NCBI GenBank assembly: GCA_000171835.1
Contig: ABHC01000014.1
Coordinates: 1-64,000 of the forward strand
Direction: 5' to 3'
Origin: an alpha proteobacterium BAL199
GTDB lineage: Bacteria > Pseudomonadota > Alphaproteobacteria > Thalassobaculales > Thalassobaculaceae
DNA length: 64,000 nucleotides
Under the pieces are notes generated by a model that saw nothing but the letters and a program-made list of their open reading frames with translations, did no database searches and was not told the DNA's origin. Both the position numbers and the translations under genes were made by a program. Position 1 is the stretch's first letter. Each line of letters begins with the position of its first letter. Shown piece after piece: positions 6,100 through 33,291 of this stretch.

Positions 6100-6238
6100 G
6101 TCTGATGTACCGCTGGATTTCGGACGCGACAGTTTGGCGTCCGTGGTCGGACCGGGCGGATCGGCCGGACGACAGGACAAGGCATCCGATCCATCAAGCG
6201 ACGGCCGCAAACCGGCCGCATGAAGGGAGGAAGCGCTT

Positions 6239-7573
6239 ATGACGGACCACATCACCCGGGATGTATCCCGCCGGTCGGTTCTCAAAGGGTCAACAGCGTT
6301 GGCAGCGGGGGTCGCGATCGGTGGCGCAGGCAGCTTGGTCGACCAGACCCGGGCCTGGGCAGCCGACTCGCCATTCGAGCCTGAGAAGGGCGCCAAGCTG
6401 CGGATGCTGCGCTGGAACCGGTTCGTGGAAACCGAGGACATCCAGTTCGACAAGAGCATGGTTGCATTCACGGAGGCAACGGGAATCCAGGTGCGGCTGG
6501 ACAAGGAGTTTCTGGACGACATCCAGCCGAAGGCGGCTGTGGCGGCGAACGTCGGCGCCGGGCCGGACATCATCTGGGGGCCAATGGCAATCCCACACCT
6601 GATCCCGGACAAGCTGCTGGACGTCACCGATGTCGCCAACTATCTCGGCGGCAAATACGGCGGTTGGTACGAGTCTCCGGCGGCCTACGGGATCCGTGAC
6701 GGCAAGTGGATGGCGCTCCCGCTGTGCGTTTCGGGCAACTACATCAACTACCGGATCTCGGCGGTGCAGAAGGCCGGATTCGAGAAATTCCCGACCACCA
6801 CTGCCGACCTGATGAAGCTGACCAAGGCGCTGAAGGCCAATGGCAGCCCGGCCGGCATGGCGCTGGGCCGTGCCACCGGTGACGGTAACGCCTGGTGCCA
6901 CTGGGTCGTGTGGGCGCATGGCGGCAAGCTGGTCGACAAGGACGGCAACGTCACGATCAACAGTCCCGAGACCGCAGCCTCGCTCGAGTACGTGAAGGAA
7001 CTCTACGAGAACTGGATCCCCGGCACGGCGTCGTGGAACGACTCCAACAACAACAAGGCGTTCCTGTCAGGCGACGTCAGCTACACCAACAACGGCATCT
7101 CGATCTATGCGGCGGCGGTCCGGCAGAAAATGGACATCGCTGCCGACATCGATCATGCCTTCTATCCGATCGGACCGGTCGGCAAGCCGACCGAACTGCA
7201 ACTACCGTTCATGATCGAGGCGTTCAAGTACTCGAAGTACCCCAACGCCTGTAAGTTGCTGATGGCTTTCCTGATGGAGGGCCCGCAGTACAACGCGTGG
7301 CTGGAGCAGTCGGTTGGATACTTCACCCAGACCCTTAAGGACTACGAGAAGAACAAAGTCTGGACCGAAGATCCCAAGCGGGCGGTGTTCAAGGAAGCCT
7401 GCACCCGGACCCTCGACATGGGCTATGCTGGGTCGCTCGGCTACGCGGCGGCGGGTGCGCTTGCCGATTTCGTGATCGTCGACATGGTCAGCCAGGCCGC
7501 GACCGGCCAGACCAGCGTTAAGGAAGCGATGGAAACCGCCCAGAAGCGGGCTGAGCGATACTACCGCGTGTGA
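6239..7573 (+). CDS. ABC transporter solute-binding protein, Tat-exported
   Basis: This is a periplasmic binding protein of the extracellular solute-binding family 1 type (444 residues), expected to deliver a sugar, polyol or similar solute to the permeases that follow. The N-terminus has a twin-arginine signal (SRRSVLKGS, R11-R12) followed by an alanine/glycine-rich hydrophobic stretch and a probable cleavage after AWA near residue 41, so it is exported folded. GGGAGG at 6225-6230 precedes ATG 6239. A small inverted repeat (CGGCC 6202-6206 / GGCCG 6214-6218) lies just before the ribosome site. No ligand can be named from sequence. Confidence 0.88.
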   Translation: MTDHITRDVSRRSVLKGSTALAAGVAIGGAGSLVDQTRAWAADSPFEPEKGAKLRMLRWNRFVETEDIQFDKSMVAFTEATGIQVRLDKEFLDDIQPKAAVAANVGAGPDIIWGPMAIPHLIPDKLLDVTDVANYLGGKYGGWYESPAAYGIRDGKWMALPLCVSGNYINYRISAVQKAGFEKFPTTTADLMKLTKALKANGSPAGMALGRATGDGNAWCHWVVWAHGGKLVDKDGNVTINSPETAASLEYVKELYENWIPGTASWNDSNNNKAFLSGDVSYTNNGISIYAAAVRQKMDIAADIDHAFYPIGPVGKPTELQLPFMIEAFKYSKYPNACKLLMAFLMEGPQYNAWLEQSVGYFTQTLKDYEKNKVWTEDPKRAVFKEACTRTLDMGYAGSLGYAAAGALADFVIVDMVSQAATGQTSVKEAMETAQKRAERYYRV

Positions 7574-7584
7574 TGACGGGCGCC

Positions 7585-7614
7585 GCGGGAACGGTCTGCC
7601 AAGGTCGTTCCCGC
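7585..7614 (+). terminator. intercistronic hairpin after the binding-protein gene
   Basis: A perfect 9-bp stem GCGGGAACG (7585-7593) / CGTTCCCGC (7606-7614) with a 12-base loop lies between the binding-protein gene and the first permease gene. There is no following U-run, so it is more likely an mRNA-stabilising or partial attenuating hairpin than a full terminator. Such elements commonly keep binding protein in excess over permeases. Confidence 0.5.
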
Positions 7615-7647
7615 CGGCCTCCGCCCACCGTTTGAAGGAGACGCGGC

Positions 7648-8604
7648 GTGGCGACCGATGCCGAGCGGGTGAGGGCTCAACGGACTGAAAGCTTCAGCGA
7701 TCGCTGGACCCAGTTGAAGTACGACCACAACTGGCTCGGCTTCTGGTTCATGCTGCCGGCGGCGGCGTTCCTGCTGTTGTTCCTGACCTATCCGCTTGGC
7801 CTAGGCATCTGGCTGAGCGTGACCGATACCCGGATCGGGCGGGAAGGCGGTTTCATCGGGCTTGAGAACTTCGAGTGGTTGAACGAGGACCCGGTGTTCT
7901 GGCTCAGCGTCTTCAACACCTTTCTGTATACGACCGTGGCCAGCGTCATCAAGTTCGGTCTCGGTCTGTATCTGGCGATTTTGCTGAACAGCCACATGCC
8001 ATGGAAGGCGATCATCCGGGCGGTGGTGTTGCTGCCGTTCATTGTGCCGACTGTGCTGTCGGCGATTGCCTTCTGGTGGATCTACGATACCCAGTTCTCG
8101 ATCATCTCCTGGACGTTGATCGAAATGGGCTGGATCGACGAGAACATCAATTTCCTCGGGGAGCCGAACAACGCCCGGGCCAGCGTAATCGCTGCCAACA
8201 TCTGGCGCGGCATACCGTTCGTGGCCATCACCCTGCTGGCCGGGCTGCAGACCATCCCGCAATCGCTGTACGAGGCGGCGACCATCGACGGGGCGTCGCG
8301 CTGGCAGATGTTCAGGCACGTCACCTACCCGATGCTGACGCCGATCATCGCTGTGGTGATGACGTTCTCGGTGCTGTTCACCTTCACCGACTTCCAACTG
8401 ATCTACGCGATGACCCGCGGTGGACCGGCGAATGCCACGCACCTGATGGCGACGCTGAGCTACCAGCGGGCGATCATGGGCGGCAACCTCGGCGAGGGGG
8501 CGGCGATCTCCACCGCGATGATCCCGTTCCTGCTGGCCGCCATCCTGTTCTCCTGGTTCGGCCTGCAGCGCCGCAAGTGGCAGCAGGGCGAGAGCGACGA
8601 TTGA
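7648..8604 (+). CDS. ABC transporter permease, MalF-like
   Basis: This is one of two inner-membrane channel subunits of the importer (318 residues, about six transmembrane segments). The EAA-type loop that docks on the ATPase is visible as EAATIDGASRWQMFRHV, matching the BPD_transp_1 family. The first membrane helix begins near residue 32 (FWFMLPAAAFLLL) after a cytoplasmic N-terminal tail. The start is a GTG at 7648 preceded by GAAGGAG. It follows the binding-protein gene after a 74-base gap containing a stable hairpin, and is followed after 16 bases by the second permease. Confidence 0.9.
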   Translation: MATDAERVRAQRTESFSDRWTQLKYDHNWLGFWFMLPAAAFLLLFLTYPLGLGIWLSVTDTRIGREGGFIGLENFEWLNEDPVFWLSVFNTFLYTTVASVIKFGLGLYLAILLNSHMPWKAIIRAVVLLPFIVPTVLSAIAFWWIYDTQFSIISWTLIEMGWIDENINFLGEPNNARASVIAANIWRGIPFVAITLLAGLQTIPQSLYEAATIDGASRWQMFRHVTYPMLTPIIAVVMTFSVLFTFTDFQLIYAMTRGGPANATHLMATLSYQRAIMGGNLGEGAAISTAMIPFLLAAILFSWFGLQRRKWQQGESDD

Positions 8605-8620
8605 CCGGAAGAGGCGAGCC

Positions 8621-9532
8621 ATGACCACCAGCCCCGGCCATCCGGCGACCGGTCCCGCTACCGGCGTAGCCCGCGACGACAGCGAGGGCATGGATTACCT
8701 GATGTCGCTGCCGCGTCGGACGGTGACCGTATACCTGCCGCTGTTGTGCTTCCTGATCGTGCTGCTGTTCCCGTTCTATTGGATGGGGCTCACCTCGGTG
8801 AAGCCGAACGAGGAATTGATCGATCGCAGCCTGAACCCCTGGTGGGTGGTCGATCCGACCATAGCCCACTACTTCCACCTGATCGTGAACACCGATTATC
8901 CGCTGTGGATGTGGAACACGATGGTGGTGGCCGTGTCGGCGACGCTATTGTCGATCGTGGCCAGCGTGATGGCGGCCTACGCCATTGTGCGAATCCGCTA
9001 CTCCGGCTCGCGCTGGGTCGGCGGCATGATCTTCATGGCCTATCTGGTGCCGCCGAGCATCCTGTTCATCCCGTTGGCGCTGGTGGTGTTCCAGTACGGG
9101 CTGTTCGACAGCCCGATGGCGCTGATCCTGACCTATCCGACCATCCTCATCCCGTTCTCGACCTGGCTGCTGATGGGCTACTTCAAGTCGATCCCCTACG
9201 AGCTTGAGGAATGCGCGTTGATCGATGGGGCCAGCCGCTGGCAGATCCTGACCCGGATCGTGCTGCCGCTGTCGGTGCCGGGCATCATCTCGGCTGGGAT
9301 CTTCGCCTTCACCCTGTGCTGGAACGAGTTCATCTACGCGCTGGTGTTCATCTCGTCGTCGGAGAACAAGACCGTACCGGTAGCGGTGCTGAGCGAGTTG
9401 GTCGAGGGCGACATCTACCACTGGGGGCCGCTGATGGCGGGCGCCCTTCTCGGCTCGGTCCCGGTGTGCATCGTCTATTCGTTCTTTGTCGAGCACTACG
9501 TCTCGTCGATGACCGGCGCGGTGAAGGAGTAG
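8621..9532 (+). CDS. ABC transporter permease, MalG-like
   Basis: This is the second channel subunit (303 residues, about six transmembrane segments). The EAA loop appears as ECALIDGASRWQILTRI, and the MalG-like C-terminal half ends in a short cytoplasmic tail. A roughly 20-residue polar tail (threonine, proline and glycine rich) precedes the first helix. ATG 8621 has GGAAGAGG upstream. It is the last gene of the operon; the next gene lies on the opposite strand 8 bases away and converges. With the upstream genes it completes a CUT1-type importer. Confidence 0.9.
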   Translation: MTTSPGHPATGPATGVARDDSEGMDYLMSLPRRTVTVYLPLLCFLIVLLFPFYWMGLTSVKPNEELIDRSLNPWWVVDPTIAHYFHLIVNTDYPLWMWNTMVVAVSATLLSIVASVMAAYAIVRIRYSGSRWVGGMIFMAYLVPPSILFIPLALVVFQYGLFDSPMALILTYPTILIPFSTWLLMGYFKSIPYELEECALIDGASRWQILTRIVLPLSVPGIISAGIFAFTLCWNEFIYALVFISSSENKTVPVAVLSELVEGDIYHWGPLMAGALLGSVPVCIVYSFFVEHYVSSMTGAVKE

Positions 9533-9540
9533 CCGCCCGG

Positions 9541-10521: not shown

Positions 10522-10782
10522 GGCGGGGTTTATATATGCAGTCCGCGCGTTGATGCCATGTCCGTCGATCATCCGGCGGTTCGTGTGAGTTCTGGGGTGT
10601 GATTGACTTTGGCTCCCTCAATCGTGGCCCGCGCTCAATCTCCGAATCGGTGTCAGTGTCGAACGGCACTGATGATCGGCTCCGGCGGCGCGAGGATCGC
10701 TTGACCCCCGACGGTCCGGATGCTGGACTTCGGCGGGCCGCGTTCGCGGCCCCAAGACAGTCGGTATTCCGGGAGAAACACG

Positions 10783-12507
10783 ATGGTGCGCAAGCGCTAC
10801 GAAGATCTGCGCAGCTACCGCTGGTACGGCGCCGACGACCTGCGGTCCTTTGGGCACCGTTCGCGCACCCTGCAGATGGGCTACGACCGGGCCGACTGGA
10901 CCGGCAAGCCGGTCATCGCCGTGATCAACACCTGGTCGGAGATCAACCCCTGCCACACCCACTTCAAGGCGCGCGCCGAAGAGGTGAAGCGCGGGATCTG
11001 GCAGGCGGGTGGCTTCCCGGTCGAGTTGCCGGCGATCTCGCTGAGCGAGCCGTTCCAGAAGCCGACCACCATGATGTACCGCAACCTGCTGGCGCTTGAG
11101 GTTGAGGAACTGATGCGTTCCTACCCGTGCGACGGCGCGGTGCTGATGGGCGGGTGCGACAAGACCACGCCAGCGTTGCTGATGGGCGCGGCCAGCATGA
11201 ACCTGCCGTCGATCTTCGTGCCGGCAGGCCCGATGCTGCGCGGCAATTGGCGCGGCAAGAGCCTGGGCAGCGGCTCGGACACCTGGAAGTACTGGGCCGA
11301 GCTGCAGGTCGGCAATATCACCCGCAAGGACTGGGAGGAGATCGAGGACGGCATCGCCCGCACGCCCGGCACCTGCATGACCATGGGCACCGCCGCCACG
11401 ATGATGAGCTCGGTTGAGGGGCTGGGCATGTCGCTGCCGGGTTCGAGCGCGATCCCCGCGGCTGACTCCAACCACTCGCGCATGGCGAGCCAGTCCGGCC
11501 GCCGGATCGTCGAGATGGTCTGGGAGGACCAGAAGCCGTCCGACGTGATGACCGAGAAAGCGTTCGAGAACGCCATCACCACGGTCATGGCGCTCGGCGG
11601 GTCGACCAACGCGGTGATCCACCTGATGGCGATGGCGGGGCGGCTTGGCGTGCCGATCGACCTGGACCGGTTCGACGCCCTGTCGCGCAAGACGCCGTGG
11701 CTGGCCGACATCCGGCCGTCCGGCCGGTTCCTGATGGAGGATTTCTATTATGCAGGCGGCCTGCCGGCGATGCTGAGCGAGTTGAAGGAGCAGTTGCACC
11801 TGGACGCGGTCACGGTCAGCGGCAAGACCCTGGGCGAAGACATCGAGCGCGCCGACATCCACAACGAGGAGGTCATCCGCCGCAGCGCCAGCCCGCTCAG
11901 CAAGGAAGGCGGACTGGTCGTGCTGCGCGGCAACCTCGCGCCGGACGGTGCGATCATCAAGCAGACGGCGTGCGACCCGAAGCTGTTGAAGCACCGCGGC
12001 CCGGCGGTGGTGTTCGCCGATTACAACGACATGCAGGCGCGCCTGAACGATCCGGACCTGGACGTCACCGCCGACTCGGTGATCGTGCTCAAGCACGCCG
12101 GGCCGCAGGGCGGGCCGGGCATGCCGGAATGGGGCATGCTGCCGATCCCGAAGAAGATCCTGCAGCTCGGCGTGCGCGACATGGTGCGGATCTCCGACGC
12201 CCGGATGAGCGGCACCAGCTACGGCACCTGCGTCCTGCATGTGGCGCCGGAGAGCTGGGTCGGCGGCCCGTTGGCGTTCGTCCAGGACGGCGACATGATC
12301 GAGCTGGACGTGCACGGCCGGCGCCTGCACCTGGATGTGTCCGACGCCGAACTGGACGCCCGGCGCGCCGCCTGGATCCCGCCGGCCCGCAAGTTCGAGC
12401 GTGGCTTCGGCGCGATCTATGCCGAGCACATTACCCAGGCGGACAAGGGCTGCGACTTCGACGTGCTGATGGGCACCAAGGCGACGCCGGAGCCGGAAAT
12501 CCACTGA
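10783..12507 (+). CDS. IlvD/Edd family dehydratase, sugar-acid type
   Basis: This is a Fe-S dependent dehydratase (574 residues) of the dihydroxyacid/6-phosphogluconate dehydratase family. The candidate cluster cysteines lie in NPCHTHF, GGCDKTTPA and TPGTCMTMGTA, and the GGSTNAVIHL and SDARMSGTSYGTC blocks are intact. Overall it looks closer to the L-arabinonate/pentonate-type members than to biosynthetic IlvD. ATG 10783 has GGGAG (10771-10775) upstream; an earlier in-frame start has no support. It heads an operon with an SDR (14-base gap) and a TauD-type dioxygenase, which favours catabolism of a sugar acid rather than branched-chain amino acid synthesis. The substrate is inferred, not shown. 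Confidence 0.85.
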   Translation: MVRKRYEDLRSYRWYGADDLRSFGHRSRTLQMGYDRADWTGKPVIAVINTWSEINPCHTHFKARAEEVKRGIWQAGGFPVELPAISLSEPFQKPTTMMYRNLLALEVEELMRSYPCDGAVLMGGCDKTTPALLMGAASMNLPSIFVPAGPMLRGNWRGKSLGSGSDTWKYWAELQVGNITRKDWEEIEDGIARTPGTCMTMGTAATMMSSVEGLGMSLPGSSAIPAADSNHSRMASQSGRRIVEMVWEDQKPSDVMTEKAFENAITTVMALGGSTNAVIHLMAMAGRLGVPIDLDRFDALSRKTPWLADIRPSGRFLMEDFYYAGGLPAMLSELKEQLHLDAVTVSGKTLGEDIERADIHNEEVIRRSASPLSKEGGLVVLRGNLAPDGAIIKQTACDPKLLKHRGPAVVFADYNDMQARLNDPDLDVTADSVIVLKHAGPQGGPGMPEWGMLPIPKKILQLGVRDMVRISDARMSGTSYGTCVLHVAPESWVGGPLAFVQDGDMIELDVHGRRLHLDVSDAELDARRAAWIPPARKFERGFGAIYAEHITQADKGCDFDVLMGTKATPEPEIH

Positions 12508-12520
12508 GGGGAACGCGGCC

Positions 12521-13219
12521 ATGACCAAGACAGCCATCCTAACCGCCGCCGGGTCCGGCATGGGGGCAGCGATCGCCCGCAAGCTGGCCGCCGACGGGTA
12601 TTCGGTCGCCATCCTGTCGTCTTCCGGCAAGGGCGAGGCCCTGGCCAAGGAACTCGGCGGCATCGGGGTAACAGGCTCCAACCTGGAGCCCGGCGACCTG
12701 AAGCGGCTGGTCGACCAGACGGTCGAACGCTGGGGCCGGATCGACGCGGTGGTGAACTCCGCCGGCCACGGACCGAAAGGTCCGGTGCTGGACCTGACCG
12801 ACGAGGACTGGCACCGCGGCCTCGACGTCTATCTGATGAACGTGATCCGCATGACCCGGCTCGTCGTACCGGTGATGGAGAAGCAAGGCGGCGGCAGCAT
12901 CGTCAACATCTCGACCTACGCCACCTTCGAGCCGGAGGCGGCGTTCCCGACCTCCGGCGTATTCCGCGCCGGGCTGACAGCCTTCACCAAGCTGGTGGCC
13001 GACAAATACGCGGCCAGCGGAGTTCGGATCAACAACCTGCTGCCGGGCTTCATCGACAGCCTGCCGGAGAAGGAAGCCTTCAAGGCCCGGATCCCCATGG
13101 GCCGGTACGGGCGGGTCGAGGAGATTGCCGAGACTGCGGCGTTCCTGGCGTCGGATAAGTCGAGCTACATCACCGGGCAGAACCTGCGGGTCGACGGGGG
13201 CATCACCCGGTCGGTCTGA
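12521..13219 (+). CDS. SDR family protein with non-canonical active site
   Basis: This is a Rossmann-fold short-chain dehydrogenase/reductase homologue of 232 residues. The cofactor-binding motif TAAGSGMG is at 8-15 and the NSAGHG segment near 79. After the serine-containing strand (VNISTYATFEP, S131) the catalytic YxxxK is missing: the aligned positions read S145 and R149 in FPTSGVFRAG. A C-terminal LPGFIDSLPEKE and GQNLRVDGG tail are typical of the family. The loss of both catalytic residues suggests either altered chemistry or a non-enzymatic role. It is second in the dehydratase operon, so it could process the dehydratase product if active. Confidence 0.85.
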   Translation: MTKTAILTAAGSGMGAAIARKLAADGYSVAILSSSGKGEALAKELGGIGVTGSNLEPGDLKRLVDQTVERWGRIDAVVNSAGHGPKGPVLDLTDEDWHRGLDVYLMNVIRMTRLVVPVMEKQGGGSIVNISTYATFEPEAAFPTSGVFRAGLTAFTKLVADKYAASGVRINNLLPGFIDSLPEKEAFKARIPMGRYGRVEEIAETAAFLASDKSSYITGQNLRVDGGITRSV

Positions 13220-13251
13220 GGCAACAACGAAGAACGTCGGGAGGAAGCACC

Positions 13252-14127
13252 ATGGCCATGGCATCGCGCTACGACACCATCCAGATCGAGCCGATCGGCG
13301 GGTCGATCGGTGCGGTCATTCACGGCGTCGACCTGGGCGCGCCGCTGTCGAACCGACAGGCCAAGGAGGTGCACGACGCCTTCCTGGAGCACTCGGTGGT
13401 GTTCTTCCGAGACCAGAAGCTGGACGATCCGGAGCGGCAGAAGCGCGCCGCCCGGCTGTTCGGCGAGCCGGTGGCGATCCCGTTCGTCAAAAGCCTGGAC
13501 GGCCATCCGGAGATCATCGACATCGTCAAGGAGGCCGAGGACGCCGGGAAGTACAATTTCGGCGGCAGTTGGCACACCGATACGACCTTCCTCGAAACTC
13601 CGGCACTCGGCTCCCTGCTGTATGCCCTGCAGGTGCCGTCGCGCGGCGGCGACACCCTGTTCGCCGATCAGTACGCCGCTTACGAGACCCTGTCGGACGG
13701 CATGCGCCGGTTGCTCGACGGCCTGACCGCCGTCCATTCCGGCTCGCGCTCCTACGGCAGCCAGTCGAAGTTCCAGGGCGGCAAGAATCAGTCGGTTTCG
13801 ATGACCATCGACGCCAACGCCGACGGTGACCGGCTGGTCGAGCATCCGGTGGTCCGCACCCATCCCGAGACCGGACGGAAGTGCTTGTTCGTCAACCCGA
13901 ACTACACGCTGCGGCTGAAGGACATGACCGAGGCCGAGAGCAAGCCGTTGCTCGACTTCCTGTACGCCCACGCGATCCGTGACGAGTTCATCTGCCGGTT
14001 CCGCTGGCAGGCCGGGTCGGTCGCGGTCTGGGACAACCGCTGCACCATGCACCGCGCCGTCAACGACTACGACGGCGCCCGCCGCCACGTCCGCCGAGTG
14101 ACGTTGCAGGGCGACCGGCCGCACTGA
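13252..14127 (+). CDS. TauD/TfdA family Fe(II)/2-oxoglutarate dioxygenase
   Basis: This is a non-heme iron dioxygenase of 291 residues. The metal triad is visible as H108 and D110 (SWHTDTTF) and H267 (CTMHRAV), and R278 is at the spacing expected for 2-oxoglutarate binding. TauD/TfdA enzymes hydroxylate substrates such as taurine, alkyl sulfates or aryloxyacids, usually releasing a small group. ATG 13252 has GGGAGG upstream; ATG 13258 is a possible alternative. It is third in the dehydratase/SDR operon with a 32-base gap. The substrate is unknown; the context suggests a sugar-acid or related carboxylate pathway. Confidence 0.9.
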   Translation: MAMASRYDTIQIEPIGGSIGAVIHGVDLGAPLSNRQAKEVHDAFLEHSVVFFRDQKLDDPERQKRAARLFGEPVAIPFVKSLDGHPEIIDIVKEAEDAGKYNFGGSWHTDTTFLETPALGSLLYALQVPSRGGDTLFADQYAAYETLSDGMRRLLDGLTAVHSGSRSYGSQSKFQGGKNQSVSMTIDANADGDRLVEHPVVRTHPETGRKCLFVNPNYTLRLKDMTEAESKPLLDFLYAHAIRDEFICRFRWQAGSVAVWDNRCTMHRAVNDYDGARRHVRRVTLQGDRPH

Positions 14128-18708: not shown

Positions 18709-20754
18709 CTAAAACGTCATGCACAGCCGGGTCGCGTCGTAGATCGCGGCGTGGACGTTGCGCGAGGCCACGGCGTCGCCGATGCGGTACAGATGGAACC
18801 GTCCGTCGGGATTGCGCACCACGGTTTGCAGACGCACCGCGATCAAGGCTTCCAGGTCGACCGCACCGTCGTTGATCGAACCCGGCTTGAGCGCGAAGTA
18901 CAACTCGTCGAGCGGTAGGGTGCCGTGCTCGACCACCACCTGGTCGACCCGGCGCTCCATCATCAGTCTTCCGTACTCGTCCCACAGTTCGGCGACCAGC
19001 TCGTTGCCGTCGCGGCGCACCCGGTGCAGGCGTTTGTTCAGGGTGATGCGCACATCGTGCCGGGCAAACGCCTTGAAGTAGCTGGGGTAGTTGATGCCGC
19101 CGAGTTCCGGAGCCAGAACCCGCTCCGGCGTGGCGATCTCGAGTGTCGACCCGGCGGCGGCCATGAACTCGGCTGCGGTCATGCCGGGGTGGGCGCCGTT
19201 GTCGTCGAACAGCAGCACCCGTTCGCCCGGCTTGGCGGCGCCGGACAGGATGTCCCAGGTGGTGGTCACCTGATCCTTGCCGTCCGAGAGGAAATCGGTG
19301 TTCGGCAGACCGCCGGTCGCCACGATCACAACATCCGGTGTTTCCGCCAGCACCTCGTCAGCCTCGGCGTAGATGTTGCAGCGCAGATCGACGCCCAGTC
19401 GCTCCAGTTCGGCGACCCGCCAGTCGACGATGCCGACCAGTTCGCGCCGTCGCGGCAGGGCGGTGGCAAGCCGGAGCTGTCCGCCGGGCTGCGGAGCAGC
19501 TTCGAGAACGATAACGTGGTGCCCTCGCTCGGCCGACACCCGGGCGGCTTCAAGACCGGCTGGGCCCGCGCCGACCACGACCACGCGTCGCGTCGGACCG
19601 ATGCTGCGGGGGACAAGGTGTGGGATCGTCGCCTCGCGTCCGGTCGCCGGGTTGTGCAGGCACAACGCCTCGCCGCCGAAGTAGATCCGGTCGATGCAGT
19701 AGGCGGCGCCGACGCACGGACGAATGCGGTCTTCTTGGCCGGCCATGATCTTGGCAACGATGTGCGGGTCGGCGATGTGCGCCCGGGTCATGCCGATCAG
19801 GTCGACCCGCCCTTCCGCCACGGCGTGCCGGGCGGTTGCCACGTCGTTGATCCGGGCGGCGTGGAACACCGCCACCCCGGTCTCGGCCCGGATCCGGCCA
19901 GCCAGATCGAGATGCGGTCCGGCCGGCGTGCCCATCGGCGGGATGACATGGCTCAGCCCCTCGTCGGTGTCGATGTGGCCCTTGATGACGTTGATGAAAT
20001 CGATGTCGCCGGCGGCGGCCAGACGGCGGGCGATCTCGGTACCCTCGCGCTCGCTCAACCCGGCCTCGACATCCTCGTCGACCACCATGCGGATGCCGAC
20101 AATAAATTCGGGCCCCACCGCATCGCGAATTGCGGCGAGTGCTTCCAGTCCGAAGCGCATCCGGTTGTCCAGGCTGCCGCCGTACCGGTCGGTGCGCTTG
20201 TTGGTCAACGGCGACCAGAATCCGTCGAGGAAATGGCCGTAGGCCTCGATCTCTACCCCGTCGAGCCCGCCGTCCCGGCAGCGCCGCGCGGCAGCACCGT
20301 AGGCGGCGGCGATCCGCTCCAGATCGAAATCTTCGGCTTCCTTGGGGAAGGCTCGGTGCGCCGGCTCGCGGATCGGCGAGGGGGCGATGACCGGTAGCCA
20401 GTCGCCGGTGGTCGAACTGGTGCGCCGGCCAAGGTGGGTGATCTGGCACATGATGGCGGTGCCGTGCGCATGCACCCCGTCCGCCAGTTCGCGCAGCCAA
20501 GGCACGATGGCGTCGTCCCAGATGTGCAGGTTGCCGAACGCCGGCGGGCTGTCGCGGTCGACGATTGCCGAACCGCCGATCATGGTCAGCCCGATGCCGC
20601 CCTTAGCCTTTTCCTCGTGGTAGAGGCGGTAGCGTTCCGTCGGCATGCCGGCTTCGGAGTACGCCGGCTCGTGTGCCGTCGACAGAATACGGTTCTTCAG
20701 AACCAGATGCTTGAGCCGGTAGGGCTGAAGCAGGGGGTCTTTGCTCTGCGTCAT
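18709..20754 (-). CDS. DgcA/trimethylamine-dehydrogenase-like NADH:flavin oxidoreductase
   Basis: This is a large flavoprotein (681 residues) with an N-terminal FMN TIM barrel and a C-terminal FAD/NAD(P)-binding half (GAGPAG near 397), like 2,4-dienoyl-CoA reductase, trimethylamine dehydrogenase and dimethylglycine demethylase DgcA. The N-terminal NRILSTAHEPAYSEAGM and ITHLGRR segments recall the DgcA branch. Fe-S candidate cysteines are C347, C353 and C365; the position of the second canonical cysteine is A350. The start at ATG 20754 (MTQSKDPLL) is chosen over the upstream frame. It is last in an operon with a NIPSNAP protein and a TAXI/TRAP transporter, which fits oxidative demethylation or similar breakdown of an imported compound. 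The exact substrate is not known. Confidence 0.85.
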   Translation of the reverse strand: MTQSKDPLLQPYRLKHLVLKNRILSTAHEPAYSEAGMPTERYRLYHEEKAKGGIGLTMIGGSAIVDRDSPPAFGNLHIWDDAIVPWLRELADGVHAHGTAIMCQITHLGRRTSSTTGDWLPVIAPSPIREPAHRAFPKEAEDFDLERIAAAYGAAARRCRDGGLDGVEIEAYGHFLDGFWSPLTNKRTDRYGGSLDNRMRFGLEALAAIRDAVGPEFIVGIRMVVDEDVEAGLSEREGTEIARRLAAAGDIDFINVIKGHIDTDEGLSHVIPPMGTPAGPHLDLAGRIRAETGVAVFHAARINDVATARHAVAEGRVDLIGMTRAHIADPHIVAKIMAGQEDRIRPCVGAAYCIDRIYFGGEALCLHNPATGREATIPHLVPRSIGPTRRVVVVGAGPAGLEAARVSAERGHHVIVLEAAPQPGGQLRLATALPRRRELVGIVDWRVAELERLGVDLRCNIYAEADEVLAETPDVVIVATGGLPNTDFLSDGKDQVTTTWDILSGAAKPGERVLLFDDNGAHPGMTAAEFMAAAGSTLEIATPERVLAPELGGINYPSYFKAFARHDVRITLNKRLHRVRRDGNELVAELWDEYGRLMMERRVDQVVVEHGTLPLDELYFALKPGSINDGAVDLEALIAVRLQTVVRNPDGRFHLYRIGDAVASRNVHAAIYDATRLCMTF

Positions 20755-20839
20755 TCGCACAGAGTGATGGGGATGGTGAGCCGGTGGCAAGAACCGTCCG
20801 TCGCGACCGGCTGTGCGCGCCGTGGCTGATCGGATCCGA

Positions 20840-21475
20840 CTATTGCATCGGCGAGTGCGCCCAGGGCAGCAGGATGATCGACTGCATTTCCTCGATCATC
20901 TCCGGTACGGTCGCGAGGAACGTGCGCCAATCAGGGTCGCTCCGCCCGGCGAGCCGGATCTCGGCCCGGTGGTTCAGGCTCTGGTAAGCCCACAGGTGCG
21001 ACACCTCGTTGGGCGAACCGGCCTCGGTCAGCCAGATGCCGACGTTCCGACGGTATTTGTCCGGCGTCGTCAGGGCGTCGCGCAGGCTTTCGGCGAACGC
21101 GCGGGCCTTGCCGACCTTTGCGCGGTAGAACCGATACTCGTAGACATGGCCGCCACCTTCCGGGGCAATCGGCGGCTTGACGGCATGCATCAGCCGGACG
21201 TCCTGGCGCAGGATCAACGGGCTGGCCACAGGCAGGTATCTGGTGCGCCAGTCTTCGTGGCGCCCAAGGGCGGCTCGGAGTTCGAGGCGGGCGTTCAGGT
21301 CGGCATATGACCACAGATGCACGACCTGGTTCAGCGGGCCGATCTCGGTCAGCCAGTAGCCTTCAAGCTTGCCGTAGTCGTCCTTGCGGATACCGCGGCC
21401 GATGTCGGCCGACAGTCGGGCGAGTTCCGGTGCCTTGCCGATAGGGGTGGTGTAGGTGCGTAGCTCGTAGATCAC
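20840..21475 (-). CDS. NIPSNAP family protein, two domains
   Basis: This is a 211-residue protein made of two NIPSNAP (dimeric alpha-beta barrel) units. The first starts at the N-terminus (MIYELRTYTT) and the second near residue 113 (VYEYRFYRAKVGKARAF). Each has the VVHLWSY/VSHLWAY signature. The NIPSNAP fold occurs in small ligand-handling and stress proteins and in some bacterial catabolic operons, with unknown biochemistry. It sits between the TRAP permease and the flavin oxidoreductase genes, all on the minus strand, so it is probably part of the same pathway. Function cannot be assigned. Confidence 0.85.
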   Translation of the reverse strand: MIYELRTYTTPIGKAPELARLSADIGRGIRKDDYGKLEGYWLTEIGPLNQVVHLWSYADLNARLELRAALGRHEDWRTRYLPVASPLILRQDVRLMHAVKPPIAPEGGGHVYEYRFYRAKVGKARAFAESLRDALTTPDKYRRNVGIWLTEAGSPNEVSHLWAYQSLNHRAEIRLAGRSDPDWRTFLATVPEMIEEMQSIILLPWAHSPMQ

Positions 21476-21549
21476 GGCGGGCCTCCCTGGCTGCCGGATG
21501 CGGCCGGCCCGAACACGACACCGCTCGGGCCGACCAGCGCGATCCGTCT

Positions 21550-23400
21550 CTACACAGTATCAGGCGCCTCGCGGTTCTTCATCAGCAGGTTCAGGCCGGC
21601 GACCGCGGCGAGGATGCCGATGCCGATGGCGTCGGTGTATAGCCCCGGCTTGATCAGCACGATGGCCGCTGAAATCAGCGCCAGACGTTGCCAGAGCGCC
21701 AATGACGCCAGCAGGTAGCCGGCAAGCCCAGCCGCTAGGCACACGACGCCGAGCATCGCGGTGATCGCGGTAATCACGATCGTCACCGGCTCGCCGATCA
21801 TTAGTAGCGACGGGCCGAACACGAACATGAACGGCACGATGTAGCCGGTGGCGCCGAGTTTGAGGGCCAGCAGGCCGGTTTCCCACAACCCGGCGTTCGA
21901 CAGGCCGTTGGCGGCGTAGACCGCCAGTGCCACCGGCGGGGTGATGGCCGACAGGATGGCGAAGTAGAACGTGAACATGTGGGCGGCTTCGACGATGATC
22001 CCGAGCTTCACCAACGCCGGCACCAACAGGGCGACCTGCACGATGTAGGCGGGGGTGGTCGGCATGCCCATGCCGAGCACGATGCCGGCCATCATGGTCA
22101 GGACCAGGGCGAGCACCAGATGGTTCTGCGAGGCCGCCAGCACCAGGCTGGTGAACTCGATGCCGAGGCCGGTGAGCGAGATCACGCCGATCACGATGCC
22201 AGCACAGCCGCAGGCCAGCGCCACCGACACGGTGTTGCGCGCGCCCGAGACCAATCCGTCCAAGATGTTGGCCGGCGTCAGATAGTGACGGGTCGATTTG
22301 CGCAGTGCGGCCGCCACCAGCACCGAGGCAATGCCGAACAGCGCCGACAACGGTGCGCTGTAGCCGGCGACCAGCGCGCCGACGATCACGACCAGCGGCA
22401 GGAACAGGTGGCCCTGCTCCTTCAGCACGGTGAACAGGCGCGGCAGTTCGGAGCGCGGCAGGCCGCGCATGCCAGTACGCTTGGCTTCGAAATGCACTGC
22501 CAGGAAGACGGCCAGGAAATACATGGCGGCCGGGATCAGCGCGTAGGCCGCCACCGTCAGGTAGCTGACGCCCAGGAACTCGGCCATCACGAACGCGGCG
22601 GCGCCCATGATCGGTGGCATGATCTGGCCGCCGGTCGACGCAACCGCCTCGACGGCGCCGGCGAAGGCCGGGCGGTAGCCGAGCTTCTTCATCAGCGGGA
22701 TGCTGAAGGCGCCGGTGGTCATCACGTTGGCGACGGCGCTGCCGGAGACCGTTCCGAACAACCCGCTGGTGATGCAGGCCACCTTGGCCGGCCCGCCGGC
22801 GGTGTGGCCGGTCAGCGCCATGGCGAAGTCCATGAACAGTTTGCCGGTGCCGGTACGCTCGACCATGGCGCCGAACAGGATGAACAGCATCACGTAGGTC
22901 GCCGACACGCTGACCGGGATGCCGAAGATGCCCTCGGTGCCGAGATACATCTGCTCCATCAACTGCGGCAGGTCAGAGCCGGCGCCGAACACGGCGTAGA
23001 GGAGGAAGGTAATGGCTGTCAGGGGCAGCGCCAGACCGACGCAGCGCCGTGTGGCTTCGAGCAGAAGCAGGATGAGCAGCGATCCCAGCACCCAGTCTTC
23101 CGGGCGCAGGTCATCGACGTAGATCATCCGGTTGTTGATGTAGTCCTGGCCCCACAGGATGTAGCCGGACGCAATGATCGACAGGCCGGCAAGCACCAAT
23201 TGGCCGATGTCAGGCGTGCTGGAGCCGCCGGTCCTGGCCGGGAAGATCAGGAAGGCCAGCACCAGGGCAAACGCCACGTGGATTGCGCGGAAGCTGAGCG
23301 CATCGGGCGCACCGAACCAGGCGGTGTAGAGATGGTAGAGGGTCATGGCGAGGCCAACGGCCGTAATCAGACCCTGCGCGAGGCGCGTCCAGCGGGGCAT
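21550..23400 (-). CDS. TRAP transporter fused permease (4TM/12TM, TAXI type)
   Basis: This is a fused small- and large-subunit TRAP permease of 616 residues with about 16-18 membrane helices. The large-subunit segments VSYLTVAAYALIPAAMY and ALACGCAGIVIGVISLTG are typical of the TRAP fused family associated with TAXI solute receptors. It uses an ion gradient to import a carboxylate or amino acid delivered by the binding protein encoded just upstream (starting 24425). It belongs to the minus-strand operon TAXI receptor, permease, NIPSNAP, flavin oxidoreductase, with gaps of 80, 74 and 85 bases. Confidence 0.9.
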   Translation of the reverse strand: MPRWTRLAQGLITAVGLAMTLYHLYTAWFGAPDALSFRAIHVAFALVLAFLIFPARTGGSSTPDIGQLVLAGLSIIASGYILWGQDYINNRMIYVDDLRPEDWVLGSLLILLLLEATRRCVGLALPLTAITFLLYAVFGAGSDLPQLMEQMYLGTEGIFGIPVSVSATYVMLFILFGAMVERTGTGKLFMDFAMALTGHTAGGPAKVACITSGLFGTVSGSAVANVMTTGAFSIPLMKKLGYRPAFAGAVEAVASTGGQIMPPIMGAAAFVMAEFLGVSYLTVAAYALIPAAMYFLAVFLAVHFEAKRTGMRGLPRSELPRLFTVLKEQGHLFLPLVVIVGALVAGYSAPLSALFGIASVLVAAALRKSTRHYLTPANILDGLVSGARNTVSVALACGCAGIVIGVISLTGLGIEFTSLVLAASQNHLVLALVLTMMAGIVLGMGMPTTPAYIVQVALLVPALVKLGIIVEAAHMFTFYFAILSAITPPVALAVYAANGLSNAGLWETGLLALKLGATGYIVPFMFVFGPSLLMIGEPVTIVITAITAMLGVVCLAAGLAGYLLASLALWQRLALISAAIVLIKPGLYTDAIGIGILAAVAGLNLLMKNREAPDTV

Positions 23401-23480
23401 GCCTGGTCTCCGGAATAGGATGAGCGAGACGCGACGGCGGAGGCGGCGATGGCCGCCTCCGCGCTACGCAACCAGTCGCG

Positions 23481-24425
23481 TCAGAGGACGCCCTGTTCCT
23501 TGTAGAACTTGGCGGCACCCTTGTGGAGCGGCACGCCGGTTTCCACGGCCATCGACTTGGCGTCAGCCTTGCCAACCGCCTTGGCGATCGAGGCGAGGTC
23601 CGGGACGTTCGCCACGATGTTCTTCAGGACGTCGTAGACCAGCTTCTCGTCCAGGTCGCAGCGCGCGATGATGTGGGTCGAGTAACCGATGGTCGGCACG
23701 TCGGCGTCCTGGCCCGGATAGCTGCCGGCCGGAACGACGATGCGCTGGTAGCCGGGGTTGATGGCCTTCATCTTGGCGAGGCCGTCATCCGGCACCGGGA
23801 CGAGCGTGATGGCGCGCGCCGAGGCGAGATCCATGATGGCGCCCGCCGGAACCGTGGTGCCGAGGGTGAACCAGTCGGCGTTGCCGTCCTTCAGCTGATT
23901 GACGCTGTCGGTGTAGGAGCCGTAGCTGACCCGGGACATGTCGTCGTAGGTCAGGCCGTAGGCGGTCAGCAGGTGCTCGGTGATCGCTTCGCCGGTATTG
24001 CCCTTCTTCTGGGTGGTCAGCGCCTTGCCCTTCACGTCGGCCGGCGTCTTGATCCCGGAGGATGCGTTCGCGACGACCTGGAAGTACTGCGGGTACAGGG
24101 TGCCGACGTTGCAGACGTTGGCCGCCTTGGTCTCGAATGGCGGCTTGCCGTTGATGGCATCGACGGTCGACACCGAGTTGGCGAAGCCGAAGTCGGTCTT
24201 GCCCGATTCCACGGCCTTCACGTTGGCAATGCCGGCGCCGGGCAGGATCTGCACGCTGCTGCCGGCGATGTTCTGCTCAACGATGTTCTTGATCGCGCCG
24301 CCCAGCGGGTACCAGGAACCGCCCTGCGGGCCGGTCATCAGCTTGAGGTCCGCCGCCTGGGCCGACACGCCGAGACCGATCGACATCAACCCTGCGGCGG
24401 CGACGCGCGCCACTAACTTCGACAT
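23481..24425 (-). CDS. TAXI family TRAP transporter solute-binding protein
   Basis: This is a periplasmic solute receptor of 314 residues. A Sec signal peptide with cleavage around residue 24 (AQA-AD) is followed by the TAXI hallmark TGPQGGSWYPLGGAIKNIV, which in known TAXI proteins lies in the ligand pocket. The ATG 24425 start has GGAGG inside the longer upstream frame at ideal spacing. It is the first gene of the minus-strand TRAP operon. Known TAXI ligands include glutamate and sialic-acid-like or small carboxylates, so the substrate is open. Confidence 0.91.
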   Translation of the reverse strand: MSKLVARVAAAGLMSIGLGVSAQAADLKLMTGPQGGSWYPLGGAIKNIVEQNIAGSSVQILPGAGIANVKAVESGKTDFGFANSVSTVDAINGKPPFETKAANVCNVGTLYPQYFQVVANASSGIKTPADVKGKALTTQKKGNTGEAITEHLLTAYGLTYDDMSRVSYGSYTDSVNQLKDGNADWFTLGTTVPAGAIMDLASARAITLVPVPDDGLAKMKAINPGYQRIVVPAGSYPGQDADVPTIGYSTHIIARCDLDEKLVYDVLKNIVANVPDLASIAKAVGKADAKSMAVETGVPLHKGAAKFYKEQGVL

Positions 24426-30887: not shown

Positions 30888-31337
30888 ATGACCGCCACGA
30901 CGTCCTCCCGGACCGCCGTCGATTTCGACCCGACCGACCCAGCCAGTTTCTCCTTCTGGACCGAGGAGCGGTTGCGCTACGGCGACCTCGATATGCTGGC
31001 GCATGTGAACAACAACGCGATCGGCGTATTTCTGGAAAATGGCCGGGTTCACCTGTTCCGGGCGTCGGGCGAGGATATTGCCGAGGGCCTGTCATGGGTG
31101 GTGCGCCGGTTGGAGATCGACTTTGTCCGGGAGATCCAGTTCCCGGGCACGGTGCGGACCGGCACCCGGGTAGCGGCGCTCGGCAATACGTCGTGCACGA
31201 TCCGGCAGGGCATCTTCGTGGATGGTGAGTGCCGCGTGACCTCGACGGCGATCGGCGTGTGCTTCGATCTTGTCGCTCGCAAATCGGTGTCGATTCCCGA
31301 TGTGGTGCGAACCCGGCTCGCCGCGCACCGGCCGTAA
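30888..31337 (+). CDS. hotdog-fold acyl-CoA thioesterase (YbgC/FadM-like)
   Basis: This is a small thioesterase of 149 residues. RYGDLDMLAHVNNN is the 4HBT signature, with the conserved aspartate (D in RYGDLD) and the HVNN motif that sit in the active site of YbgC-like enzymes. It hydrolyses acyl-CoA thioesters in the cytoplasm; the acyl group is not predictable. It lies 56 bases downstream of tamB on the same strand, with AGGA ahead of ATG 30888. Confidence 0.85.
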   Translation: MTATTSSRTAVDFDPTDPASFSFWTEERLRYGDLDMLAHVNNNAIGVFLENGRVHLFRASGEDIAEGLSWVVRRLEIDFVREIQFPGTVRTGTRVAALGNTSCTIRQGIFVDGECRVTSTAIGVCFDLVARKSVSIPDVVRTRLAAHRP

Positions 31338-31787: not shown

Positions 31788-32729
31788 TCAGTTTACGGGC
31801 GTGACCAGCGGCTTGCCGGCGATCCCCAGCAGCAGGTTCTCCATCACCAACCGACCCATGGCGAGGCGGGTGTCATGGGTGGCGCTCGCCTGGTGCGGCT
31901 GCAGCACGACATTCTCGGTCATGTCCTTCAGCGCCTGCGGTACCCGCGGTTCGTCGGCGAACACGTCGAGGCCTGCGGCACCCAGACGGCCGTCCTTCAG
32001 CGCGGCAATCAGTGCATCCTCGTCCACTACACTGCCGCGCGCCACATTGATCAGCGTGCCGTTCGGGCCGAGGGCGTCGAGCACCTCGCGGTTCACGATG
32101 TGCTTGGTGCTGTCGCCGCCCGGCACGATGGCTATCAGGATGTCGACGTCACGGGCCATGTCGACCAGCGAGGCGTAGTGCTTGTAGGGCACGTCCTTCC
32201 GGGTGCGGGTGTGGTAGGCGATGTCCATCTTGAACGCCGCGCAGCGCTGGGCGATCTCGATGCCGATGCGGCCAAGCCCGAGGATACCGATCTTGCGGCC
32301 CCAGACTCGGTGGGTGAAGGTCATGTCGCCTTCGCGCTCCCACCGGCCCTCGCGGACATAGCGGTCGGCCTGGGGGATGCGCCGGCAGGTCGCCATGGTC
32401 AGCGCGATCGCGAAATCGGCCACCTCGTCGCTCAACACGTCGGGGGTGTTCGACACCTTGATGCCGCGGGCGGTTGCAGCCGCCACATCGACGCCGTCAT
32501 AGCCGACGCCGTGATGGGCGATGACCTTGACGTTTGGCAAGGCGTCCATGGTGGCGGCGTCGCACACCTTGCTGTCGGCGATGCCGACGCAGGTATCGCG
32601 CAGCGAGGCGAGCAGGGCGGCCGGATCCTTGGCTTCCCAGAGCTTGTGGACGGTGAAGTGCTCGTCCAGTTCCGCCATGGCCACGTCATACCAGGGTGAC
32701 AGGATCAGGATGTCGGGCTTCTTGGTCAT
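31788..32729 (-). CDS. D-2-hydroxyacid dehydrogenase (NAD-dependent)
   Basis: This is a cytoplasmic oxidoreductase of the D-isomer 2-hydroxyacid dehydrogenase family (313 residues), interconverting a 2-ketoacid and D-2-hydroxyacid (glyoxylate, hydroxypyruvate or a phosphonate-like substrate). The NAD-binding motif GLGRIG is near 151-156, and the catalytic R231 (NVARGS), E260 (DVFADEP) and H279 (LQPHQASAT) are all present. ATG 32729 has GGAGG upstream. It follows the DUF924 gene on the same strand after 19 bases, so the two may be co-transcribed. The actual substrate is uncertain. Confidence 0.88.
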   Translation of the reverse strand: MTKKPDILILSPWYDVAMAELDEHFTVHKLWEAKDPAALLASLRDTCVGIADSKVCDAATMDALPNVKVIAHHGVGYDGVDVAAATARGIKVSNTPDVLSDEVADFAIALTMATCRRIPQADRYVREGRWEREGDMTFTHRVWGRKIGILGLGRIGIEIAQRCAAFKMDIAYHTRTRKDVPYKHYASLVDMARDVDILIAIVPGGDSTKHIVNREVLDALGPNGTLINVARGSVVDEDALIAALKDGRLGAAGLDVFADEPRVPQALKDMTENVVLQPHQASATHDTRLAMGRLVMENLLLGIAGKPLVTPVN

Positions 32730-32748
32730 GAGGGCAGTCCTCCGGAAG

Positions 32749-33291
32749 TCAGAACGACGAATTCGGTTGGGTGAGGAACTCAAGCTCCTCGGCGGTGCTG
32801 GTCCGGCCGAGCGCGGCGTTGCGGTGCGGGAACCGGCCGAAACGCTCGATGATGACGCGGTGGCGCATGCCGTAGTCGATCAGCATGGCGTCGCCGAGTG
32901 CTGCGAAGAACGCCTCGCACCACAACTGATCGGCCAACTCCTCGCTGTGCTCGAACGGCAGGAACAGGAACAGGCAACGGTCGCGCGACGCGAACACATG
33001 GTCGCCGGCAGCAATGGCTCGGCGGGCGATGTCGCGGGCGCGGGCGTCCTGGGCAAAGGCTCGCGGATCGCCGCGATACAGGTTGCGCGACATCTGGTCG
33101 AGCACCAGCAGCAGGGCCAGCCGGCCGTCGGCCGTGGCCTCCCAGCCGGTGAGACCGCCGGCTGACGCTTCCGCATGCACTGCGCCGAATCGCGTGCGCA
33201 GCGTGGCATCGAATGCGTCGTTCTTTTCGAACCATTGCTGTGGCGTGCATTCGCTGAACCAGAACGCCAGAACGTCCTCTGGTAGTGTCAA
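32749..33291 (-). CDS. DUF924 family protein
   Basis: This is a 180-residue all-helical protein of the DUF924 family, with the motifs FWF at the N-terminus, LDQMSRNLYRGDPRAFAQD in the middle and FLFLPFEHSE later. Its function is not established. The start is a TTG at 33291, preceded by GAGGAG; this gives the usual DUF924 length. No ATG start lies upstream in the same frame near the family boundary. It is co-directional with the hydroxyacid dehydrogenase and divergent from the following lipoprotein gene, with a 159-base gap that should hold both promoters. Confidence 0.75.
   Translation of the reverse strand: MTLPEDVLAFWFSECTPQQWFEKNDAFDATLRTRFGAVHAEASAGGLTGWEATADGRLALLLVLDQMSRNLYRGDPRAFAQDARARDIARRAIAAGDHVFASRDRCLFLFLPFEHSEELADQLWCEAFFAALGDAMLIDYGMRHRVIIERFGRFPHRNAALGRTSTAEELEFLTQPNSSF

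What the first reader, a model, noticed from the sequence alone, without database searches (positions are those of the whole stretch)
18709..24425. TAXI/TRAP importer, NIPSNAP protein and DgcA-like flavoprotein in one operon
The four minus-strand genes run receptor, fused permease, two-domain NIPSNAP and demethylase-like flavoprotein, with gaps of 74-85 bases. This suggests import and oxidative breakdown of one compound, for example an N-methylated amino acid, betaine or alicyclic carboxylate. NIPSNAP proteins have no settled biochemistry, so a fixed place in a catabolic operon would be a clue to their role. This is the best candidate for a poorly described pathway in the window.
Basis: inference. 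Interest (0 to 1): 0.55.

Follow-up and report, generated by a model that had tools for sequence, protein, structure and literature searches.

The report
Importer, NIPSNAP and demethylase gene array
Four neighbouring genes in a Thalassobaculum bacterium look like one pathway, but gene neighbourhoods in relatives suggest a sugar-acid importer, a NIPSNAP protein of similar company and an N-methyl amino-acid demethylase that came together only in this lineage.

Summary
Four same-strand genes (TAXI receptor, fused TRAP permease, two-domain NIPSNAP, DgcA/HpbA-type flavoprotein) lie at 24425-18709 with gaps of 80, 74 and 85 bases.

The reading as one conserved pathway does not hold well. All four were found together only here: 1 of 36 family genomes and 1 of 385 class genomes (capped scoring). 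Two relatives have three of them: one MAG TAXI-permease-flavoprotein, and T. fulvum TAXI-permease-NIPSNAP.

Elsewhere each part keeps other company. TAXI orthologues have hydroxy-acid or sugar-acid genes nearby in 44 of 80 loci and amine-demethylation genes in 0 of 80; the flavoprotein has 1 and 11 of 40. The NIPSNAP has SMP-30 lactonase, short-chain dehydrogenase, enolase-type dehydratase or class II aldolase directly beside it in 14 of 25 class-level loci.

Best reading: an aldonate or 2-hydroxy-acid importer with a sugar-acid-type NIPSNAP, followed by an N-methyl amino-acid demethylase that probably serves another route. The bolder reading is that two-domain NIPSNAPs are mutarotase- or lactone-isomerase-like enzymes of oxidative sugar-acid pathways. 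That is testable but untested.

The parts
23481..24425 (-). TAXI-family TRAP solute receptor, 314 aa, N-terminus like a signal peptide (alternative start 24440)
21550..23400 (-). fused TRAP permease (TIGR02123), 616 aa
   Evidence: a homologue was found in 76 of the 80 TAXI loci
20840..21475 (-). two-domain NIPSNAP protein, 211 aa, GTG start
18709..20754 (-). HpbA/DgcA-family flavoprotein, 681 aa (FMN domain, Fe-S motif, NAD(P)/FAD part)
19660..19716 (-). Fe-S motif C347-x5-C353-x11-C365; position 350, a Cys in trimethylamine dehydrogenase, is Ala
10783..12507 (+). IlvD/EDD-type dehydratase, above the L-arabinonate dehydratase cut-off; homologues lie beside some TAXI orthologues elsewhere
   Evidence: NF009559 986.4 bits against 882
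12521..13219 (+). short-chain dehydrogenase next to the dehydratase
13252..14127 (+). TauD/TfdA-type dioxygenase; 85-91% identical at the same locus in three relatives
5026..9532 (+). ABC importer with MalK-type ATPase, receptor and two permeases, upstream of the dehydratase
30888..31337 (+). 4HBT thioesterase; homologues near some TAXI orthologues
31788..32783 (-). D-2-hydroxyacid dehydrogenase; homologues near some TAXI orthologues
38489..39934 (-). GlcD-like FAD-linked oxidase (below the GlcD cut-off); homologues near some TAXI orthologues
1377..2758 (+). CoA-transferase subunits A and B; homologues near a few TAXI orthologues (1 of 20, 2 of 80)

Best explanation
The array joins parts with separate histories. 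The TAXI receptor and fused permease most likely import a 2-hydroxy acid or aldonate (a pentonate such as arabinonate is the best single guess) for dehydratase/aldolase breakdown; this species' L-arabinonate-type dehydratase lies 11 kb from the TAXI gene in the same window. The NIPSNAP is most likely an accessory protein of the same kind of chemistry. The flavoprotein is most likely an N-methyl amino-acid demethylase of the HpbA type, placed behind the importer in this lineage, that serves a quaternary-amine route rather than the imported compound. Shown: gene identities, order, spacing, and the usual neighbours of each part. Inferred: substrate class, co-transcription, and lack of metabolic coupling between importer and flavoprotein.
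For: Importer: 20 class-level TAXI loci showed an IlvD-type dehydratase in 8, an HpaI-type aldolase in 7 and an Ldh2-type dehydrogenase in 6; the same searches gave 0 of each in 40 flavoprotein and 20 class-level NIPSNAP loci, and in 27 family NIPSNAP loci only T. fulvum's dehydratase. In 80 loci from titled records, 44 have a sugar-acid or hydroxy-acid gene within 6.5 kb and 0 an amine-demethylation gene. One representative each of GlcE, GlcF, hydroxypyruvate isomerase (also above the 2-oxo-tetronate isomerase cut-off) and tartronate-semialdehyde reductase from there passes its NCBIfam cut-off. In two genomes of genus g9 (L364, L365; one titled Nisaea sp.) the importer (82%/74%) lies next to the dehydratase, with CoA transferase, thioesterase and D-2-hydroxyacid dehydrogenase near. 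Receptor pocket: by the alignments the two decisive glutamate residues of VcGluP, Y45 and Q93 (PMC11574862, passages read), fall on W38 and N83, invariant in the 15 aligned sequences, own included. Flavoprotein: amine genes in 11 of 40 loci; directly behind MttB in T. fulvum (L352) and G026 (L354); in one clade with the HpbA-named protein and the seven MttB-linked ones, apart from the three dgcB/etf-linked ones. NIPSNAP: directly beside it, same strand, SMP-30 in 5 of 25 class-level loci, SDR in 5, enolase-type in 3, class II aldolase-type in 1.
Against: In G030 the flavoprotein follows the permease on the same strand with only a 70-codon open frame between. In G010, another genus, a 79%-identical flavoprotein lies at the syntenic locus, between a different TAXI/TRAP pair (34%/44%) and TauD plus dehydratase. 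L118 has an IlvD-type gene (38%) at an MttB-enolase-flavoprotein locus. These suggest the flavoprotein could belong to the acid pathway. 36 of the 80 TAXI loci show no gene of the sugar-acid list. No homologue of the HpaI-type or DHDPS-type aldolase, the Ldh2-type or the TPP enzyme was found in the window itself. The family lists and profiles were drawn up partly from the same loci, the 20 and 80 loci overlap, and related genomes are not independent, so the P-values are descriptive only. A TAXI system of another alphaproteobacterium, Cereibacter sphaeroides, is reported to serve L-glutamate uptake (PMC12632250, passages). 29 of 40 flavoprotein loci show no amine gene of the list. The window's dehydratase is not in the operon.
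Confidence: 0.5

Rival explanations
1. One reading: one operon that imports a methylated amino acid or betaine through TAXI/TRAP and demethylates it with the flavoprotein, NIPSNAP helping.
For: Tight same-strand spacing; TAXI-permease-flavoprotein in G030; flavoprotein of the HpbA/DgcA family.
Against: The four were found together in 1 of 36 family and 1 of 385 class genomes. TAXI orthologues have none of the six amine families within 6.5 kb in 80 loci. T. fulvum keeps the importer without the flavoprotein here and has its flavoprotein behind MttB elsewhere.
Confidence: 0.2
2. One coupled pathway, but for a hydroxy or sugar acid: the flavoprotein has been recruited to oxidise an intermediate of that route (for example an N-methylated or amino sugar acid) together with TauD and the dehydratase.
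For: Flavoprotein, TauD and dehydratase stay at one locus in this genome, G030 and G010; L118 has MttB, an enolase-superfamily gene, the flavoprotein and an IlvD-type gene.
Against: TauD and dehydratase lie on the opposite strand, with the two cytochrome bd-like genes and a histidine kinase between them and the array in this genome. A BamA-like and a TamB-like gene (names from sequence, recalled), with no evident metabolic link, are kept at the same locus in T. fulvum and G010, so shared order may be simple descent.
Confidence: 0.25
3. The array has no functional logic: flavoprotein and NIPSNAP are chance arrivals behind the importer.
For: Presence and absence differ among three genomes of the genus; the NIPSNAP here is a divergent second copy (76% to the copy on C65, which is 88% identical to G030's).
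Against: Importer and two-domain NIPSNAP orthologues independently show related sugar-acid or lactone company.
Confidence: 0.05

Closest known systems
TAXI-TRAP transporters (VcGluP/VcGluQM of Vibrio cholerae; L-glutamate TAXI of Cereibacter sphaeroides)
   Same: TAXI receptor with a TRAP membrane component; receptor homologous to solved TAXI proteins
   Different: Y45 and Q93, decisive for glutamate in VcGluP, are W and N here. TAXI ligands named in passages of PMC12344293 are glutamate, 2-oxoglutarate/2-hydroxyglutarate and phthalate; aldonates are not among them.
HpbA, N-methyl-L-proline demethylase, as annotated on Paracoccus plasmids
   Same: 58.7% identity over the full length (H12); same clade and same three-Cys motif
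   Different: Here behind a TAXI importer; the annotated relative has a betaine-type ABC importer downstream. HpbA biochemistry (Kumar et al. 2014) is recalled; the paper is not held.
DgcA of the dgcAB-etfAB dimethylglycine route
   Same: 49-51% identity and the same three-Cys motif in the three dgcB/etf-linked rows
   Different: Separate clade in the quick tree; no dgcB homologue beside this gene.
L-arabinonate-type (Dahms-like) pentonate breakdown
   Same: Dehydratase above the NF009559 cut-off in the window and in L209 beside a TAXI orthologue; aldolase and glycolate-branch genes near orthologues
   Different: No aldolase of the types searched was found in this window; the pathway assignment is from recall of the enzymes.
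NIPSNAP family (PF07978; solved single-domain proteins 2ap6, 1vqs, 1vqy, 5ixu, 5kak, 5k9f)
   Same: Both halves match the family
   Different: Tandem two-domain form; neighbours point to sugar-acid and lactone chemistry. The solved chains are named hypothetical, uncharacterized or NIPSNAP domain protein.

Membership tests
TAXI-TRAP transporter | TAXI receptor above the family cut-off beside a TRAP fused permease above its cut-off | tested here: met
   TIGR02122 and TIGR02123
Glutamate-specific TAXI | Tyr and Gln equivalent to VcGluP Y45 and Q93 | tested here: not met
   W38 and N83 by sequence alignment, invariant in 15 sequences
HpbA-type N-methylproline demethylase | full-length homology to, and same clade as, a protein annotated HpbA | tested here: met
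   58.7% identity; one clade of 34 rows, SH-aLRT 100, quick tree. The named protein is itself only annotated.
HpbA-type N-methylproline demethylase | N-demethylation of N-methylproline | not testable with these tools
   needs an enzyme assay
DgcA proper | clade and gene linkage with dgcB and etfAB | tested here: not met
   dgcB/etf-linked rows form another clade; none among the neighbours here
Four-Cys Fe-S flavoproteins (TMADH type) | four cysteines CxxCxxC...C for the [4Fe-4S] cluster | tested here: not met
   second Cys is Ala350
NIPSNAP | PF07978 above cut-off | tested here: met
   142.5 bits, two stretches
RhaM-like mutarotase or lactone isomerase | same fold and mutarotase or isomerase activity | not tested
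   AlphaFold model unusable, pLDDT 33.5; the profile found only NIPSNAP chains in the PDB and, weakly, ABM in Pfam, neither for nor against
L-arabinonate dehydratase (window 10783-12507) | score above the NF009559 cut-off | tested here: met
   986.4 against 882 bits

The most novel reading that the evidence does not exclude
Two-domain NIPSNAP proteins of Alphaproteobacteria are enzymes of oxidative sugar-acid breakdown, acting on the aldose or aldonolactone stage like a mutarotase or lactone isomerase (the dimeric alpha/beta-barrel fold is shared with such enzymes; recalled), and this TAXI clade imports the matching aldonates. That would give NIPSNAPs a first biochemical role and TAXI transporters a new ligand class.
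Probability: 0.15. Interest if true: 0.7.

Novelty: new member of a known kind. Interest (0 to 1): 0.35.

Why it matters
As one pathway the array is weak evidence. Taken apart it gives two testable leads: a TAXI clade whose genomic company points to sugar acids or hydroxy acids, where few TAXI ligands are known, and a neighbourhood signature for two-domain NIPSNAPs (SMP-30 lactonase, SDR, enolase-type dehydratase, aldolase), a family without settled biochemistry.

Tried and rejected
A single methylated-amine operon was set aside as the leading reading because of the neighbourhood split. A glutamate ligand was set aside because both decisive pocket residues differ. Strict DgcA membership was rejected by clade and linkage. 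A general NIPSNAP-TRAP link was looked for: a TRAP large permease was found within 6.5 kb in 1 of 25 class and 8 of 27 family NIPSNAP loci, against 2 of 40 class and 1 of 14 family flavoprotein loci; the profile missed G010's permease at the cut-off used, which would make the last figure 2 of 14. This is not a general rule.

The neighbour profiles were built from neighbours of these same NIPSNAPs. Enolase-type genes are not special to NIPSNAP: they lie within 6.5 kb in 4 of 25 NIPSNAP, 4 of 40 flavoprotein and 3 of 79 TAXI loci. The three two-domain NIPSNAP loci of another family found in the phylum sample (L372-L374) have none of these neighbours in their same-strand run.

A structure of the NIPSNAP was predicted from two sequences, gave pLDDT 33.5 and was not used. 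A fold link to RhaM could not be tested. The careful flavoprotein tree did not finish; the quick one is used. The NIPSNAP tree does not resolve whether the window copy is sister to T. fulvum's (support 0.08).

Paper searches on NIPSNAP with operon/flavoprotein, bacterial/gene cluster, gluconolactonase, dimeric alpha-beta barrel and operon/catabolism listed nothing that looked relevant by title and abstract. One on TRAP transporter with L-arabinonate dehydratase listed one paper, which was not opened. Passages on TAXI in PMC4545795 gave no ligand. These searches do not show that nothing is in print.

Left out of counts: one of the 80 TAXI loci could not be anchored (79 used); L377 was fetched but repeats part of L234 and was not counted. 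In the tree grouping the label 'MttB_next' also took in a distant 28% homologue of locus L115; the seven true neighbours are meant above.
Full report
What is there. The window is G000:C56:1-64000 of a 6.1 Mb genome in 69 contigs. Its same-genus relative G029 is Thalassobaculum fulvum KCTC 42651: the TAXI match on a 417,488-base contig agrees in length and place. On the minus strand lie a TAXI receptor (24425-23481), a fused TRAP permease (23400-21550), a two-domain NIPSNAP (21475-20840) and a 681-aa flavoprotein (20754-18709). Promoter and terminator scans show no clear internal break. Co-transcription is plausible but not shown.

Do the four genes travel together? In the 36 genomes of the order (all one family) the NIPSNAP is found in 28 (E up to 1e-10), the flavoprotein in 19 (1e-100) and the TAXI receptor at 80% identity or more in 5. 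Contiguity was read from coordinates and from the neighbourhoods fetched. Only this genome has all four. G030 (L351, the MAG M30B52) has TAXI-permease-flavoprotein with a 70-codon open frame where the NIPSNAP would be, and its flavoprotein frame is broken near codon 38, an assembly error or a real lesion. T. fulvum (L056/L270) has TAXI-permease, an opposite-strand gene of the lipocalin-like cluster, then NIPSNAP, and no flavoprotein here. G010, of another genus, has a 79% flavoprotein at the syntenic locus, with a different TAXI/TRAP pair (34%/44%) two genes away on the opposite strand. In 385 class genomes the flavoprotein is in 53, TAXI in 34 and NIPSNAP in 24 (E limits 1e-100, 1e-60 and 1e-40, with only the best 3, 5 and 8 candidates per genome scored). 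By coordinates no genome but this one has two of them close together; G359 has TAXI and a 36% flavoprotein homologue about 25 kb apart on one contig. Many assemblies are drafts, so a link across contigs would be missed.

Company of the importer. In 20 class-level loci TAXI orthologues lie near an IlvD/EDD-type dehydratase in 8, an HpaI-type aldolase in 7 and an Ldh2-type dehydrogenase in 6. L209-L211 also carry a thioesterase and, variously, a D-2-hydroxyacid dehydrogenase, CoA transferase and GlcD-like oxidase. Homologues of the dehydratase, thioesterase, D-2-hydroxyacid dehydrogenase, CoA transferase and oxidase lie in this window too, scattered over 1.4-39.9 kb; the aldolase, Ldh2 and TPP enzymes do not. 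The dehydratase passes the L-arabinonate dehydratase cut-off both here and in L209. Among 80 loci from titled records a permease homologue was found in 76, the flavoprotein in 1 (G030) and the NIPSNAP in 1 (T. fulvum). 44 of 80 have at least one hydroxy-acid or sugar-acid gene within 6.5 kb and none an amine gene; the 40 flavoprotein loci give 1 and 11, and the 25 NIPSNAP loci 0 and 0 on the same lists. One representative each of GlcE, GlcF, hydroxypyruvate isomerase and tartronate-semialdehyde reductase passes its cut-off; the aldolase and Ldh2 representatives lie below the equivalog cut-offs of their best models, so their exact substrates are open. Dehydratase, aldolase and a glycolate/glyoxylate branch are what pentonate breakdown through a 2-keto-3-deoxypentonate would need (established pathway, recalled).

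Receptor pocket. In the alignment to 8s4j (I take this chain to be VcGluP, from recall) VcGluP's Y45 and Q93, the residues whose loss costs 213- and 990-fold in affinity (PMC11574862, passages read), fall on W38 and N83; E125 falls on Q113. The alignment to the Thermus protein 1us4 in the same call agrees for the first two. All three positions are invariant in the 15 aligned sequences, own included. Glutamate bound in the same way is therefore unlikely. The ligand itself is unknown. A Cereibacter sphaeroides TAXI system is reported for L-glutamate (PMC12632250, passages); whether it belongs to this clade was not tested.

The flavoprotein. The best solved homologues are a chain named NCR (6qkg), 2,4-dienoyl-CoA reductase (1ps9) and trimethylamine dehydrogenase. 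Full-length plasmid homologues of 58.6-58.9% are annotated HpbA. In a quick tree of 50 rows it falls in a 34-row clade (SH-aLRT 100) with the HpbA-named protein and the seven MttB-linked ones, apart from the dgcB/etf-linked clade. Neighbours at class level include MttB in 7, GbcA and GbcB in 3, DgcB in 3, DMGDH in 3 and SHMT in 2 of 40 (families of the representatives; the names GbcA, GbcB, DgcB and DMGDH are recalled). In T. fulvum and G026 it directly follows MttB on the same strand. This genome has three MttB genes, all on other contigs. The second cysteine of the Fe-S motif is absent in all 46 sequences of at least 45% identity, own included (43 of them C-x5-C-x11-C), with the three dgcB/etf-linked ones among them, and present in four more distant homologues.

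The NIPSNAP. Both halves match PF07978; each of 22 two-domain homologues matches it, and the only other Pfam match under 0.1 is a weak one to ABM in two members. In 18 of 27 family loci it stands between two opposite-strand genes; in four genomes of genus g11 a TauD gene lies 106-131 bases upstream on the same strand. At class level the immediate same-strand neighbours (25 loci, gap under 150 bases) include SMP-30/gluconolactonase in 5 (three families), SDR in 5, enolase-type in 3 (one family) and a class II aldolase-type in 1. SMP-30 was found within 6.5 kb in 5 of 25 against 0 of 40 flavoprotein and 0 of 79 TAXI loci, SDR in 15 against 1 and 9, enolase-type in 4 against 4 and 3. The profiles were built from these neighbours and the loci share ancestry, so the counts are descriptive. 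The enolase-type protein of L242 scores best, below cut-off, with galactonate dehydratase; the aldolase-type protein of L238 scores best, below cut-off, with a dihydroxyphthalate decarboxylase and is followed by DctP-type TRAP genes. On a Variovorax plasmid a 36% homologue precedes a branched-chain-type ABC importer beside an acyl-CoA cluster, a different company. This suggests, without proving, a role in sugar-acid or lactone chemistry, which agrees with the importer's company.

Verdict. The unity of the operon is doubtful: importer and NIPSNAP point to sugar acids or hydroxy acids, the flavoprotein to methylated amines. The TAXI-permease-flavoprotein order in G030 and the shared locus in G010 keep a coupled pathway open.

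Noticed in passing
19660-19716: The Fe-S motif lacks the second Cys (CVGAAYC-x11-C). The loss is shared by all 46 sequences of at least 45% identity examined, dgcB-linked ones included, so the family may hold a cluster with three Cys ligands.
   Followed up: partly
G000:C65:33290-33922 (L054): A second two-domain NIPSNAP (76%) with a Lipocalin_5 gene on the other strand; homologues of the pair are side by side in G030, T. fulvum and two genomes of genus g8.
   Followed up: partly
5026-14127: MalK-type ABC importer, L-arabinonate-type dehydratase, SDR and TauD dioxygenase form a second catabolic stretch; parts of it keep company with this locus in relatives.
   Followed up: partly
51-1250: ISL3-type transposase at the window's left edge, next to the CoA-transferase genes.
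   Followed up: no
L248:8995-11677: On Sinorhizobium meliloti pSymB a 58.7%-identical flavoprotein is followed at 46 bases by a gene annotated dimethylsulfoniopropionate lyase. Whether this flavoprotein is StcD, which lies on pSymB (PMC12239276, passage), was not determined.
   Followed up: no
L350:13781-14260: In G010 a glutathione-dependent formaldehyde-activating (GFA) family gene ends 10 bases from the end of the flavoprotein gene, convergent.
   Followed up: no
L378:8013-13048: A Variovorax plasmid carries a NIPSNAP (36%, full length) as first gene before a branched-chain-type ABC importer, beside an acyl-CoA catabolic cluster.
   Followed up: no
L351:7295-9400: The flavoprotein frame of MAG G030 is broken near codon 38, by assembly error or mutation.
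   Followed up: no
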